In this document: one piece after another, positions 3,357-39,520 of the stretch
Numbering within the stretch: the stretch's first letter is position 1
Layout of the letters: every line of letters starts with the position of its first letter
From: Oscillibacter sp.
Lineage (GTDB): Bacteria > Bacillota > Clostridia > Oscillospirales > Oscillospiraceae
NCBI RefSeq assembly: GCF_028693505.1
Contig: NZ_JAQUVF010000018.1
Span: 1-49,049 of the forward strand
Direction: 5' to 3'
DNA: 49,049 nucleotides
The notes under the pieces: model-generated
What the model was told of the DNA's origin: nothing
The model's database searches: none
The model's input: only the letters and a program-made list of their open reading frames with translations
Translations under genes and position numbers: made by a program

Positions 3357-3722
3357 TTATTGCGTGCCTTTTTCAAACGCTTCCCGCAGCTTGCTCAGGG
3401 CCTTTGATTCCAACCTGGATACGTAGCTTCGTGAAATGCCAAAGGAGGACGCGACCTCCCGCTGGGTGAGCGGGATGGTCCCTCCAAGACCGTAGCGCAG
3501 GCGGATGATCTCCGCCTCCCGCTTGGTCAGGCGGTTTTGGATAAGGGAGTGAAGCTGTATGGCGCTGTCCCGGTCGTGAAGATCTTCCAGCATGGTGTCG
3601 TCCACGCCCACCACATCCATCAGCTGCAACACATTTCCCTCTTTGTCGGATTCAATGGAGTCGGATAAGGAGACCTCCCCCTGTAATTTTTTTTGACTGC
3701 GGAAGTACATAAGGATCTCATT
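3357..3722 (-). pseudogene. sigK: sigK 3' part (C-terminal half of sporulation sigma factor K), severed by the skin element
   Basis: The C-terminal 120 residues of a mother-cell sigma factor start at NEILMYFRSQKK and end at FEKGTQ. Region 3 shows the SigK-like pattern SLSDSIESDKEGN. Region 4 contains the helix-turn-helix segment TQREVASSFGISRSYVSRLE. The part has no start codon of its own: upstream, the frame simply runs antiparallel-free into recombinase DNA. Joined at the CATTT core to the 5' part at 39176-39520, it gives an in-frame 230-residue protein (Bacillus SigK is about 241). It is a functional gene part awaiting excision rather than a decayed pseudogene. It could be confused with SigE, but the DKEGN region and the split at IEN/EIL point to SigK. 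Confidence 0.9.
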
Positions 3723-3743
3723 TGCTATGCGCACATAACGGCT
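3700..3743. other. Left attachment site of the sigK intervening element
   Basis: The 5-bp core CATTT (3719-3723) is shared with the right end (39190-39194). Outside it, to the left, is sigK coding DNA. Inside it, 3723-3743 forms a 21-base arm that matches the inverse of 39171-39191 at 17 of 21 positions. The recombinase stop codon (minus-strand TGA, 3720-3718) lies within the core. This is the chimeric site expected after serine-recombinase integration. Confidence 0.85.
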
Positions 3744-5418
3744 CCGCGCTGCCCTTGCTGCCGCCGGAGACAGTGGCAGCATCGTCGAAGGCCCCCGAGA
3801 GGTACACATGAGCCTCCTTGCCGTCCCACACGACCTTTTGAACGCAGGCGCGGATGGCGGCGCGCTGCTGCTCCACAGTCATGGCCTCCAGCGTTTTTTG
3901 GAAGGAGTGGAGTAACTCGTAAAGCGTGTCATATGCAAGCTCCAGCGCTTGCGTGCCTGCCGGGAGTTGCTGCATGCGGCGCAGCAGCTGCTGGCGCTGT
4001 TCGTGCAGCTGCTGGATCTGCCGCAGGATGTAATCCTCCGCCGCCGTGCCGGCCGCCTTGGTCAAGGAGGACACCAGCGTTTCGATGGCCTGTTCGGCGT
4101 CGGCAAGCTGTGCGCGCATAGCTTCCGGATCTTGCGTGCTGCTCTTTTCCCCTTTGGCGAGGTTTTTTTCCCCTCTTTTCAGCTGCCGCATAAGCTCGCT
4201 GCGGTCCTCCGGCAGCTTTGCGAGAGCCGCAAGGACCGCCCTGTCCAGCGCGTTTCCGTTTGCGTTTTTACTGTTGCAGCAGTCGCAGCGGCTGCGCTCC
4301 TTGGTGGAGCAAAGGTAGGTGTAAATCTGGACGCCATGGGCGTCCACGCGACTTGATAATTTCGGGCGCATGTAGTCGCCGCAGCTGCCGCAAAGCAGCA
4401 GGCCGGATAACAGCGCCACGTGACTGCGGGGCTTTCGATAGCTTTTGGACCGGTTTTGCGCCAGCAGCGCCTGTGCCCTGACCCACTGTGCACCAAGAAT
4501 CAGGCCCTCGTGCTTGCCAACCGAGACGATCCACTCCGACATGGGGCGCGTTTTATTAGCCTTGCCCGCCTTCTGAAGGGTACGGTTATAGGCGATCACA
4601 CCGTGCTTCCCGTCAAACTCCGCCTCTTCGGAAAACAGGTCCACGGCGTTTTCGGTCAGATAGCGGTAAGCGTCCTCGTCGGCAACCATGTAGACAGGGT
4701 TTGAAAGGATTCCCCTGATGGCAAAGCGGGAGAACGCCTTGCCGTTCTTTGTCGTGCAGCCGCTTTGCAAAAGAAAGGCGTCTGTTCGGGTCAGGGAATT
4801 GGTCTCCAAAAATTTGCTGAAAATGGTGCGGACGACTTCCACTTCTTCCGGAATGGTTTTCAGCTTGCACGCCTTGCGGACCTTGCCGTCCACGCTGACG
4901 CGCTGCACCTGCTCCGAGGCATAGCCCGTGGGCGTTGTGCCGCCAAGCCACCGCCCTGTTTTGGAAAGCTCATGCATGTTGTCCCGAATGCGCTCGGCAA
5001 TGGTTTCCCGCTCCAATTGGGAAAATACAGAGGCAATATACATCATGGCCCGGCCCATGGGGGAGGAGGTGTCAAACTGCTCTTTCATGGACACGAAGGA
5101 AATGTTCAAATCGTTCAGCCGCTGGATCAGCGCCGCAAAATCTCCAATATTGCGGCTGATGCGGTCGAGGCGGTATACAATGATGGCGGAGAGCCTGCCT
5201 GCCGCAGCATCCGCCATCATCTTTTTAAAGTGGGGACGGTCCAAATTCCCGCCGGAAAAGCCCTCGTCCTCATAGAGCAAAGCGGACGCGGCGGCGGCTG
5301 CCCCCTCGTGGGCGGTGATGTACTGTCTGCAAAGCTCAATTTGGTTTTCGATGCTTTCCCCCTTGCCCGTAAAACGGGATTTGCGGGAATAAATAGCGAT
5401 TGCCTTTTCATCACACAT
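3718..5418 (-). CDS. spoIVCA: Large serine recombinase (SpoIVCA-like sigK element recombinase)
   Basis: A 566-residue site-specific recombinase. The N-terminal resolvase domain (about residues 5-150) starts with AIYSRKSR, where the serine of the YxRxS motif is the expected nucleophile, and continues with the EDEGFSGGN, YRLDRISRN and GRAMMYIASVFSQLERE motifs. A recombinase domain follows (about 160-300). A zinc ribbon comes next (CGSCG, then Cys residues around CSTKERSRCDCC, about 335-385), and then a coiled-coil-rich C-terminus. The ATG at 5418 is preferred because GGAGGTG lies just upstream of it. The gene ends exactly in the left attachment core and lies in the same orientation as the split sigK, as in known skin elements. 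It should catalyse both integration and, with a directionality factor, mother-cell excision. The gene name is assigned by role and position. Confidence 0.9.
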   Translation of the reverse strand: MCDEKAIAIYSRKSRFTGKGESIENQIELCRQYITAHEGAAAAASALLYEDEGFSGGNLDRPHFKKMMADAAAGRLSAIIVYRLDRISRNIGDFAALIQRLNDLNISFVSMKEQFDTSSPMGRAMMYIASVFSQLERETIAERIRDNMHELSKTGRWLGGTTPTGYASEQVQRVSVDGKVRKACKLKTIPEEVEVVRTIFSKFLETNSLTRTDAFLLQSGCTTKNGKAFSRFAIRGILSNPVYMVADEDAYRYLTENAVDLFSEEAEFDGKHGVIAYNRTLQKAGKANKTRPMSEWIVSVGKHEGLILGAQWVRAQALLAQNRSKSYRKPRSHVALLSGLLLCGSCGDYMRPKLSSRVDAHGVQIYTYLCSTKERSRCDCCNSKNANGNALDRAVLAALAKLPEDRSELMRQLKRGEKNLAKGEKSSTQDPEAMRAQLADAEQAIETLVSSLTKAAGTAAEDYILRQIQQLHEQRQQLLRRMQQLPAGTQALELAYDTLYELLHSFQKTLEAMTVEQQRAAIRACVQKVVWDGKEAHVYLSGAFDDAATVSGGSKGSAEPLCAHSK

Positions 5419-5471
5419 GCGCCGCACCTCCATTCACTGAAAAAAGAAGCCTGAGAAGAGCCGCGGACATT

Positions 5472-5500
5472 TCATGGAATTCAAAATACCCGCATAGAAT
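5472..5500 (+). promoter_or_regulatory. Candidate mother-cell (sigma E/K-like) promoter for the small ORF
   Basis: CATAGAAT at 5493-5500 resembles the sigma E -10 consensus (CATACAAT-like). TCATGGA at 5472-5478, 14 bases upstream, is a partial match to the -35. The surrounding 11-mer CCCGCATAGAA (5489-5499) also occurs upstream of sigK on the minus strand (39551-39541). The rest of the recombinase/ORF divergent gap shows no clear sigma A promoter. Confidence 0.35.
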
Positions 5501-5530
5501 TCATTATCAGATATATGGGAGAGGTTGGCT

Positions 5531-38504: not shown

Positions 38505-39056
38505 ATGAACGATCAGGGAGCGGATGTGCTGATTTACACCTGTCCCTTCGGCGGCGGCGCGGAGGAATCCCACCGCCTGCTGTACCGGGCGGCAGCACAG
38601 TATACCGGCGCGGCGGAATGCCGCTGGACCATTTCTCACGGGCCCAAGGGCAAGCCGCATTTCACCCAGATGACCGACGTGCACTTTAGTATCACGCACA
38701 GCGGCGCTTTTTGGATGTGCGCCTTTTCCGACCGGCCGGTGGGACTGGATTTGCAAAAACACCAGCCCTGCCAGCGTGAAAAACTGTCGAAACGGTTTTT
38801 CCATCCATGGGAGGACGCGTTTTTGAACCGGCGCGGCTATTTGAATTTTTTTGAGTTGTGGACCGCGAAGGAAAGCTACGTAAAATATACCGGGCAGGGC
38901 ATCACGGAAGAATTGGAGAATTTTTCGGTGGTAAGCCAAACGGGGGAATTCCCGCATTTGGCGGGGGTTCAGTTTCGGCTGCTGCCCTGGCAAAAGGAGT
39001 ACGCGCTGTGCCTGTGCGCACAGGAAATCGGCGCCGTGCATCTGACGGAGCTGTAA
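38505..39056 (+). CDS. Sfp-type 4'-phosphopantetheinyl transferase
   Basis: 183 residues, shorter than Sfp (about 224), with all signature motifs: GPKGKPHF, FSITHSG, VGLDLQK with the metal Asp, and FFELWTAKESYVKYTG. It transfers phosphopantetheine from CoA to the carrier domains T1, T2 and the free carrier protein next to it. It is the last gene of the plus-strand operon, 100 bases from the element end. Confidence 0.9.
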   Translation: MNDQGADVLIYTCPFGGGAEESHRLLYRAAAQYTGAAECRWTISHGPKGKPHFTQMTDVHFSITHSGAFWMCAFSDRPVGLDLQKHQPCQREKLSKRFFHPWEDAFLNRRGYLNFFELWTAKESYVKYTGQGITEELENFSVVSQTGEFPHLAGVQFRLLPWQKEYALCLCAQEIGAVHLTEL

Positions 39057-39076
39057 AGGAAACGGCGGCGCGGAAT

Positions 39077-39160
39077 ACGGATGACGGAAGCGTCATCCGT
39101 CCTATATGGCGCTATGCAATCAAACGGGACCGCTCTGCCATGGCAGGGCGGTCCCGTTTT
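39077..39160 (+). terminator. Tandem hairpins closing the NRPS operon at the element edge
   Basis: A perfect 10-bp stem (39077-39086 with 39091-39100, GAAG loop) is followed by a 17-18-bp stem with one G-T pair (39122-39139 with 39142-39159) ending in TTTT. Together they form a strong terminator, just inside the right attachment site, that shields sigK from read-through. Confidence 0.8.
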
Positions 39161-39170
39161 CATATGGTTA

Positions 39171-39194
39171 AGCCGCTATGATAGCATAGCATTT
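39171..39194. other. Right attachment site of the sigK intervening element
   Basis: The core CATTT (39190-39194) has the element arm 39171-39191 on its left and sigK coding DNA on its right. On the minus strand sigK reads through the core into the element and meets a stop four codons later (AMLS then TAG at 39178-39176). Confidence 0.85.
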
Positions 39195-39520
39195 TCAATG
39201 CATCTGGCAGCATATGTGGCAAGGCGCGCGCCTTTTGTGGCGTCGAAACTGGAGATGGCTTTGATGAGACCGATGGTGCCGATGGAGATCAAATCTTCCT
39301 GATCGGTGCTTTGCGTATAATACTTCTTGACAATGTGCGCAACCAGGCGCAGGTTTCGTTCGATCAGCGCGTTCCGGGCTTCGGCGTCCCCTTTGGCGCA
39401 GCGCTGCAGGCAATCCTGTTCCTCTGCGGCGGAAAGCGGCTTTGGAAAGGAACCGCCGCCGGACAGGCGCAGGGTAAACAGGAGCGTGTTGGCAAATAAC
39501 AGCAATGCGGCAGACAGCAT
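39176..39520 (-). pseudogene. sigK: sigK 5' part (N-terminal half of sporulation sigma factor K)
   Basis: 114 codons, of which 110 are sigK and the last four (AMLS) come from the element. ATG at 39520 has AAGGAGG eight bases upstream. A hydrophobic N-terminus (SAALLLFANTLLFTLRL, residues 3-19) precedes SFPKPLS; this resembles the pro-sequence of pro-SigK. Region 1.2/2 follows: NLRLVAHIVKKYY, then EDLISIGTIGLIKAI and ATYAARCIEN. On excision the codon GAA-AAT is joined to GAG-ATC, giving RCIENEILMYF. The promoter on the minus strand may be mother-cell specific: CCCGCATAGAA lies at 39551-39541. Confidence 0.92.

What the first reader, a model, noticed from the sequence alone, without database searches (positions are those of the whole stretch)
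3357..39520. sigK split by a 35.5-kb skin-like element
The N-terminal half of SigK (39520-39176) and C-terminal half (3722-3357) are on the same strand, in the right order, and end in the same 5-bp core. Joining them at the core gives ...RCIEN-EILMYF... in frame, 230 residues. A large serine recombinase abuts the left core. Together this shows programmed excision during sporulation, as known for Bacillus subtilis skin and C. difficile skinCd.
Basis: partly seen in the sequence, partly recalled or inferred. Interest (0 to 1): 0.95.

Follow-up and report, generated by a model that had tools for sequence, protein, structure and literature searches.

The report
Pilus and peptide-synthetase island splitting sigK
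In this relative of Oscillibacter the gene for the late sporulation regulator sigma-K is split by a 35-kb DNA element that carries a type IV pilus operon, with the only pilus-extension motor gene (PilB) found in the genome, plus a peptide-making assembly line, and that element is predicted to be cut out, restoring the gene, in the mother cell while a spore forms.

Summary
Two sigK halves lie in order on the minus strand, 35,471 bp apart, share the core AAATG (39190-39194, 3719-3723) and join in frame to a 230-aa SigK. The only full-length SigK-like gene found elsewhere in this 97.65%-complete genome is SigE. Joining the ends the other way restores an inverted repeat, GCATAGC-AAAT-GCTATGC; the same centre is palindromic in 27 complete elements (mean 8.9 of 12 pairs; 1.6-4.3 at other offsets). 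The adjacent recombinase belongs to a lineage found with a sigK piece in 75 of 80 named loci. A small conserved ORF, the likely directionality factor, lies in 25 of 27 elements, the window's being the seed. Unlike B. subtilis skin, Pfam showed no phage domain in the cargo: a type IV pilus operon with the genome's only PilB found, and a C-A-T-C-A-T-reductase NRPS cluster. Related elements carry an arginine operon (G106), panB/panC in [Clostridium] viride (sole panB found) and probably hydrogenase genes. Mother-cell excision is inferred, not shown. Verdict: a genuine sigK-intervening element; new cargo variant of a known kind.

The parts
39190..39520 (-). sigK 5' half (N-terminal codons, ends in the core)
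   Evidence: TIGR02846 positions 8-116, E 6.9e-44; frame and join
3357..3723 (-). sigK 3' half (C-terminal codons, begins in the core)
   Evidence: TIGR02846 positions 109-226, E 3.7e-33; Sigma70_r4
39190..39194 (-). right core AAATG (attachment site at the N half)
3719..3723 (-). left core AAATG (attachment site at the C half)
   Evidence: rejoined attP inverted repeat
3718..5433 (-). large serine recombinase, 571 aa; last codons and stop lie in the left attachment site
   Evidence: Pfam Resolvase, Recombinase, Zn ribbon; homologues with sigK pieces in 24 of 29 and 75 of 80 loci
5525..5737 (+). small ORF, 70 aa, predicted recombination directionality factor
   Evidence: family of 42 ORFs, 37 distinct, in 25 of 27 complete elements, itself the seed; CATAGAAT -10-like box 32 nt upstream
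5894..11293 (-). giant 1799-aa protein with DUF5057, perhaps a pilus-associated surface protein
   Evidence: PF16480 E 6.3e-49; function guessed from position
11315..16447 (-). prepilin-like proteins (11315-11881, 11885-12376, 14536-15750), an unassigned 708-aa protein (12404-14530) and a PilN/T2SSM-like protein (15791-16447)
   Evidence: N_methyl motifs; T2SSM below its cut-off
16462..18114 (-). PilM
   Evidence: PF11104 E 1.5e-22; TIGR01175 95 bits, below its cut-off of 133
18241..19002 (-). prepilin peptidase PilD
   Evidence: PF06750, PF01478
19028..19489 (-). prepilin-like protein
   Evidence: PF07963
19566..20783 (-). PilC platform protein
   Evidence: T2SSF, two stretches, E 4.8e-66
20829..21884 (-). 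PilT retraction ATPase (a second PilT-type gene lies on contig C45)
   Evidence: TIGR01420 478 bits, above its cut-off of 319; C45 homologue 49% identical
21915..23627 (-). PilB extension ATPase with MshE-type c-di-GMP domain; the only PilB-type ATPase found in the genome
   Evidence: TIGR02538 606 bits, below its cut-off of 676; NF053729 above its cut-off; PF05157; whole-genome PF00437 search
23761..25191 (-). von Willebrand A-domain protein
   Evidence: PF13519
25465..33171 (+). dimodular NRPS, C-A-T-C-A-T-reductase, 2568 aa
   Evidence: two Condensation, two AMP-binding, two PP-binding stretches, NAD_binding_4; codon score
33002..35043 (+). 7TM-PAS sensor histidine kinase, read here as two overlapping ORFs
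   Evidence: HisKA_7TM, weak PAS, HATPase_c; homologue in G215 matches in one frame
35040..36590 (+). response regulator with HD-GYP-like output
   Evidence: Response_reg, DUF3369, HD_5
36587..38254 (+). AMP-binding acyl/aminoacyl ligase
   Evidence: PF00501 E 3.5e-56
38271..38501 (+). acyl/peptidyl carrier protein
   Evidence: PF00550
38505..39056 (+). 4'-phosphopantetheinyl transferase; closest NCBIfam model AusB, below cut-off
   Evidence: PF01648; NF047349 66 bits, cut-off 225

Best explanation
A 35,471-bp element bounded by the 5-bp core AAATG splits sigK into two in-frame halves and carries a large serine recombinase, a predicted directionality factor, a type IV pilus operon and an NRPS cluster; the recombinase with that factor would excise it in the mother cell, likely under sigma-E, making a functional sigK and discarding the pilus and NRPS genes with the circle. 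Shown by sequence: split gene, shared core, in-frame join, no second sigK found, recombinase, att symmetry, cargo. Inferred: that the 70-aa protein is the directionality factor, that its promoter is sigma-E dependent, that excision happens and is confined to the mother cell, and that the forespore keeps the element. The same recombinase/factor/att system recurs in related genomes with unrelated cargo, so the likely reading is a stable sigK insertion platform into which host operons have been loaded.
For: Join, core and circle junction. No full-length SigK-like gene elsewhere except SigE, 349.7 bits against its cut-off of 348.6. attP symmetry 9 of 12 in the window and mean 8.9 over 27 elements, against 4.1 for attB and 1.6-4.3 at shifted centres. 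Recombinase homologues have a sigK piece in the DNA held in 24 of 29 and 75 of 80 loci. Directionality-factor family: 42 hits, 37 distinct, among 12,589 small ORFs, in 25 of 27 complete elements including the seed. CATANAHT -10-like box near 13 of 36 factor genes against 2.5 expected, including the window; one of the 13 (L180) lies inside the listed ORF. Of 21 sigK-half loci inspected, two (G215 N side, G252 C side) have contig ends exactly at the core, as a mixture of integrated and excised molecules would give. Intact syntenic sigK in G155.
Against: No reads, PCR or expression data. The two-box sigma-E promoter scan was near chance (mean 11.3 against 10.7 in shuffles; window p = 0.42). The factor family is named by association; its model (pLDDT 78) matched no solved structure at E <= 0.001, and C. 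difficile CD1234 was not compared by sequence. Two of 27 complete elements lack a detectable factor. The 27 elements are not independent (several are Lacrimispora), and four further loci with both halves were left out (three duplicates; L181 with a partial N half). att symmetry is weak in some (5 of 12 in L114, L143, L145; 6 in G231). The contig-end signature could also come from strain mixtures and is not in the window's genome. No natural joined copy of this very gene was seen (best 86%).
Confidence: 0.82

Rival explanations
1. A mobile island that merely uses sigK as its attachment site: it can integrate and excise, but its excision is not tied to sporulation, and the host tolerates the split.
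For: The recombinase has a distant relative in Terrisporobacter phage TPELB_ph1 (38% over 93%); 41 of 86 genus genomes list an intact or near-full sigK (my reading, tallied), so the site is often empty; sigma-E promoter evidence is weak.
Against: The association of this recombinase lineage with sigK is very wide (75 of 80); no phage domain was found in the cargo by Pfam; a small factor gene is conserved, with a -10-like box in part of the cases.
Confidence: 0.12
2. A dead insertion: sigK is permanently broken and the lineage no longer completes sporulation.
For: No excised form was seen for this species; the element is large and holds the only PilB found.
Against: Both halves, the core, the att arms and the recombinase are intact, including residues invariant in ten aligned sigK-linked recombinases; SigE is present. 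Other sporulation genes were not surveyed.
Confidence: 0.05
3. An assembly chimera joined two sigK halves to unrelated DNA.
For: The genome is a 49-contig draft.
Against: The attP repeat is split exactly at the two borders and restored by joining; the same architecture recurs in many genomes, including the one-contig genome G078.
Confidence: 0.01

Closest known systems
Bacillus subtilis skin element (48 kb, spoIVCA)
   Same: Splits sigK; 5-bp core; serine recombinase inside the element; excision restores sigK (passages: PMC4191935, PMC10745906, PMC13141910). That the split falls near the same codon is recalled
   Different: skin is mostly phage genes (though its arsenic-resistance operon, recalled, is non-phage cargo) and spoIVCA lies at the 5' half in opposite direction; here the recombinase lies at the 3' half in sigK's direction and Pfam shows no phage domain in the cargo
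Clostridioides difficile skinCd with CD1231/CD1234
   Same: Serine recombinase plus a small 72-aa directionality factor under sigma-E and SpoIIID (passages, PMC5025042)
   Different: 14.6 kb and prophage-like, at another position and orientation than skin (passage, PMC10745906); C. difficile SigK lacks a pro-sequence, while here the N half has a hydrophobic leader by eye; CD1234 was not compared by sequence
Bacillus cereus biovar anthracis island IV in sigK
   Same: A sigK insertion without phage genes, excised during sporulation (passages, PMC10745906)
   Different: Inserted at nucleotide 195, with a type I restriction system; no pilus or biosynthetic operon is named in the passages seen
gin element in gerE of Bacillus cereus ATCC10987
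   Same: Non-phage gene-intervening element with recombinase and small factor GirX (passages, PMC5595907)
   Different: Other host gene; three recombinases; cargo mostly unknown plus restriction-modification
AusA/AusB-type and gut clostridial reductase-ended NRPS clusters
   Same: Dimodular NRPS ending in a reductase, with a phosphopantetheinyl transferase; homologues of the same domain set named Lawsonibacter and Oscillospiraceae
   Different: Here inside a sigK element next to pili; product untested; the aldehyde/pyrazinone link is recalled

Membership tests
sigK-intervening (skin-type) element | sigK split into two collinear halves that rejoin in frame at a short shared core | tested here: met
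sigK-intervening (skin-type) element | element encodes its own serine recombinase next to a border | tested here: met
sigK-intervening (skin-type) element | no intact second sigK | tested here: met
   genome 97.65% complete
[quoted passage not shown]
   needs PCR, reads or reporters
prophage-derived skin | phage structural or packaging genes in the element | tested here: not met
   no phage structural domain among the cargo ORFs scanned with Pfam; PHROGs was run on related elements only, not on the window
recombination directionality factor | small protein required with the recombinase for excision | not testable with these tools
   association only: 25 of 27 complete elements, seed included
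recombination directionality factor | sigma-E-type promoter | tested here: inconclusive
   -10 box 13 of 36 against 2.5 expected; two-box scan near chance
type IVa pilus system | PilB, PilT, PilC, PilM, PilD and prepilins in one cluster | tested here: met
   PilT above its NCBIfam cut-off; PilB and PilM below theirs, but those are the best or near-best models
reductase-terminated dimodular NRPS | two C-A-T modules and a terminal reductase, with a PPTase nearby | tested here: met
reductase-terminated dimodular NRPS | peptide aldehyde or pyrazinone product | not testable with these tools
   needs chemistry

The most novel reading that the evidence does not exclude
sigK in clostridia is a dedicated loading dock: one recombinase, factor and att system carries swappable host operons (pili plus NRPS here; arginine, pantothenate and hydrogenase genes elsewhere), so that functions of the growing cell are programmed to be deleted from the mother-cell genome at the moment sigma-K is made, while the spore inherits them.
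Probability: 0.45. Interest if true: 0.8.

Novelty: new variant of a known kind. Interest (0 to 1): 0.62.

Why it matters
sigK elements are usually described as prophage remnants; the non-phage cases in the passages seen carry restriction systems or unknown genes. Here the split gene holds a whole pilus operon, with the only PilB found in the genome, and a natural-product cluster; related elements hold the only panB found ([Clostridium] viride) or the only strong argG hit (G106). If excision is mother-cell specific, terminal differentiation in these clostridia includes programmed loss of vegetative functions. That makes it testable why such elements persist (cargo benefit or sigma-K timing), and gives a recombinase, factor and att set with which to study excision control.

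Tried and rejected
Minus-strand ORFs at 25654-33270 were first taken as six unknown genes; codon scoring and Pfam showed that they are antisense to the NRPS. I first read the T2SSE search as 'only PilB and PilT'; on checking, the C45 ATPase is itself PilT-like (49% identical to the window PilT; best solved-structure matches are PilT), so only PilB is claimed as single. A first att analysis chose the core by longest identical run and misplaced it in several elements; the centre was then fixed by codon register from the window. Other copies of this cargo in sigK elements: T4P queries and NRPS/kinase queries against 100 loci (L103-L202) gave only regulator hits in L133 and an AMP-ligase hit in L195; many loci reach only 10 kb from the recombinase, so more distant cargo would be missed. 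Pilus loci of five relatives (L204-L208; L208 is only 3.3 kb) show no sigK-element or NRPS gene on the stretch held. A sigma-E two-box search was not better than chance. The fold search found nothing significant. The 7.5-kb Terrisporobacter phage stretch showed no such att arm. Slippage at the kinase overlap was considered; the G215 homologue matches in one frame, so no programmed frameshift is claimed. Paper searches for sigK elements with pili, with NRPS or 'skin element' with Oscillospir- returned 0 papers; broader ones showed no such case in titles or abstract starts. Of six papers I saw found passages, of the others listings only; none was read whole.
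Full report
OBSERVATION. The window is one 49,049-bp contig (C28) of a 2.06-Mb, 49-contig genome, 97.65% complete. spore_sigmaK (TIGR02846) hits 39176-39502 (-) over model positions 8-116 and 3375-3728 (-) over 109-226. The shared core is AAATG. Joined at the core, the frame is 693 nt, a 230-aa SigK with RCIEN|EILMYF at the seam. The best other match in the genome, C34:32474-33097, is SigE (349.7 bits against a cut-off of 348.6). Upstream genes (solute-binding, laccase-domain, SecA) lie in the same order beside an intact sigK in G155, so the locus is probably the ancestral one; the downstream genes (1-3300) were not found in the G155 stretch held. G155:C22 has the length (305,852) of a contig behind a SigK named Oscillibacter valericigenes, and G231:C108 that of a Dysosmobacter record, which suggests the genus.

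ATTACHMENT SITE. Joining the two inner ends gives GCGCATAGCAAATGCTATGC: an inverted repeat GCATAGC/GCTATGC centred on the core. In 27 complete elements, window included, the reconstituted attP has on average 8.9 of 12 complementary pairs at this centre, against 4.1 for the rejoined attB, 6.2 and 4.9 for the present borders, and 1.6-4.3 at other offsets. The range is wide (5 in L114, L143 and L145 to 12 in G091, L110 and L111), and several elements are close relatives. A common arm is GGATAGC/GCTATCC; the window differs at the same position in both arms, keeping the palindrome. The arm next to the C half also encodes the end of the recombinase: in the window ...A-H-S-K-stop, in many relatives E-D-S-K-stop, the stop being completed by the core and the next sigK base. 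In the predicted circle the recombinase frame would run seven codons further (read from the junction).

RECOMBINASE AND FACTOR. The recombinase has Resolvase, Recombinase and zinc-ribbon domains. Of 29 homologue loci returned from 300 family genomes, 24 hold a sigK piece in the 1.5-kb flanks. A 70-aa ORF (5525-5737 +) seeded a search of 12,589 small ORFs: 12 hits in the first round, itself included, 42 after iteration, 37 of them distinct, with motif IIVHxP...HA...LxCPxxQK..LLDA. It lies inside 25 of 27 complete elements; G091 and L111 lack one. Among 5.8 billion proteins the profile found 1,098 hits of 2,848 candidates; the 120 listed bear no function name. A sigma-E/K-like -10 box CATANAHT lies near 13 of 36 against 2.5 expected, 32 nt upstream of the window ORF; the full two-box search was not better than chance. 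The consensus sequences are recalled. The role as directionality factor is an inference by analogy with CD1234 of C. difficile (72 aa; PMC5025042, passages).

CARGO. From the recombinase inwards on the minus strand: a 1799-aa DUF5057 protein, prepilin-like proteins, a PilN-like protein, PilM, PilD, PilC, PilT, PilB with a c-di-GMP-binding domain, and a VWA protein. The T2SSE family search of the whole genome gives four matches: PilB and PilT here, one on C45 (141 bits) and a weak one on C41 (18.5 bits, below cut-off). The C45 protein (353 aa) is PilT-like, 49% identical to the window PilT, beside a PilC-like protein 22% identical to the window's. So the element holds the only PilB-type ATPase found, and one of two PilT-type ATPases. 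On the plus strand: a 2568-aa NRPS with two C-A-T modules and a reductase, a 7TM histidine kinase read as two overlapping ORFs, an HD-GYP-like response regulator, an AMP-ligase, a carrier protein and a phosphopantetheinyl transferase. G+C is even across the element (0.58) and its flanks (0.55 and 0.60). The NRPS cluster recurs in the same order in G215 at 56-64% NRPS identity, on a contig without sigK, recombinase or pilus matches; among 86 genus genomes only these two have it at E <= 1e-60. Pilus loci of five relatives lack it on the stretch held. So pili and NRPS seem to have been brought together in this element.

RELATED ELEMENTS. The 27 complete elements run from 2.7 to 35.5 kb, the window's being the largest; elements were only counted as complete if both halves lay in the DNA held (mostly 20 kb), which favours small ones. 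G106 carries argG, argH, argC-like, argJ, argB-like kinase, argD-like aminotransferase and OTC genes; its argG scores 210 bits, with one other hit just over the cut-off (33 against 27 bits) and one below it, in an 87%-complete genome. [Clostridium] viride carries panB and panC, panB being the only match in a 99%-complete genome. Of 39 ORFs scanned (of 50 listed) from twelve loci, three match NiFe hydrogenase large subunits and three small subunits, which fits the 458-aa and neighbouring ORFs of the Lacrimispora loci L143, L146 and L180 (assignment to loci inferred from size). G292 carries an amidohydrolase, symporter, enoyl-CoA hydratase, alanine racemase, MatE and a transposase. PHROGs matches among 77 selected cargo proteins of ten loci are mostly regulators, with a tail protein, an endolysin and an integrase family matched by two proteins each in the 25 families shown of 117, so phage traces exist in some. 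Only part of each tally was listed.

DISTRIBUTION. In the genus (86 genomes, window included) my reading of the listed matches (tally; weak matches were not listed) gives 41 with an intact or near-full sigK, 11 with halves split near residue 110, 10 with hits that start near residue 60-65, and 24 unassigned. Of 21 sigK-half loci inspected, two, in G215 and G252, have contigs that end exactly at the core, on the N and the C side. A de Bruijn assembler would give this when both integrated and excised molecules are present (inference; the assemblers are unknown); strain mixtures would do the same.

MECHANISM. [quoted passage not shown] recombination at the core joins sigK and releases a circle with pilus and NRPS genes; sigma-K then runs late mother-cell genes; the forespore keeps the element. 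Only the anatomy is shown.

COMPARISON. Skin is 48 kb and mostly phage genes; skinCd is 14.6 kb and prophage-like; island IV of B. cereus biovar anthracis and gin in gerE lack phage genes (passages of PMC10745906, PMC5025042, PMC5595907). So a non-phage intervening element is not new in itself. Pilus or NRPS cargo in sigK was not found in the searches made for it (both 0 papers); arginine, pantothenate and hydrogenase cargo had no search of its own, and the general searches showed none in titles or abstract starts. The library holds open-licence papers only. Verdict: a real sigK-intervening element, a new cargo variant of a known kind, with a wider pattern worth testing.

Noticed in passing
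L114 (G112) and L115/L116 (G091): sigK is cut into three collinear pieces by two elements (breaks near residues 67 and 113), each with a serine recombinase in G112; G154 and G369 show similar piece patterns over several contigs.
   Followed up: partly
G082, G200, G207, G246 and six more genus genomes (L119-L122): Apparent second sigK insertion site near residue 62-67 with other recombinases (24-29% identical); N pieces were seen in L119 and L122 only. It is about the nucleotide-195 site of the B. cereus biovar anthracis island.
   Followed up: partly
L110:4207-12402 (G106): A set of seven arginine-biosynthesis-type genes lies inside a 10.3-kb sigK element.
   Followed up: yes
L106/L131 ([Clostridium] viride DSM 6836): panB and panC inside the sigK element; panB is the only match found in the genome.
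   Followed up: yes
L216 end (G215:C201) and L234 end (G252:C11): Contigs end exactly at the AAATG core, on the N and the C side, as expected if excised and integrated forms coexist in the sample.
   Followed up: partly
3718-3740: The recombinase's last codons and stop overlap the attachment site, so integration state would change its C-terminus; shared by many relatives.
   Followed up: partly
34180-34320: The sensor kinase reads as two overlapping ORFs in different frames; the G215 homologue matches in one frame.
   Followed up: partly
L238 (own genome, C45:1-9000): A second pilus-like locus with a PilT-like ATPase and a distant PilC-like protein, no PilB found.
   Followed up: partly
L170: A contig titled Faecalibacterium prausnitzii holds the recombinase beside a sigK 3' half, odd for a species recalled as non-sporulating.
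   Followed up: no
L203: A Terrisporobacter phage integrase is 38% identical over 93% of the recombinase, the only phage record covering over 80% of it.
   Followed up: partly
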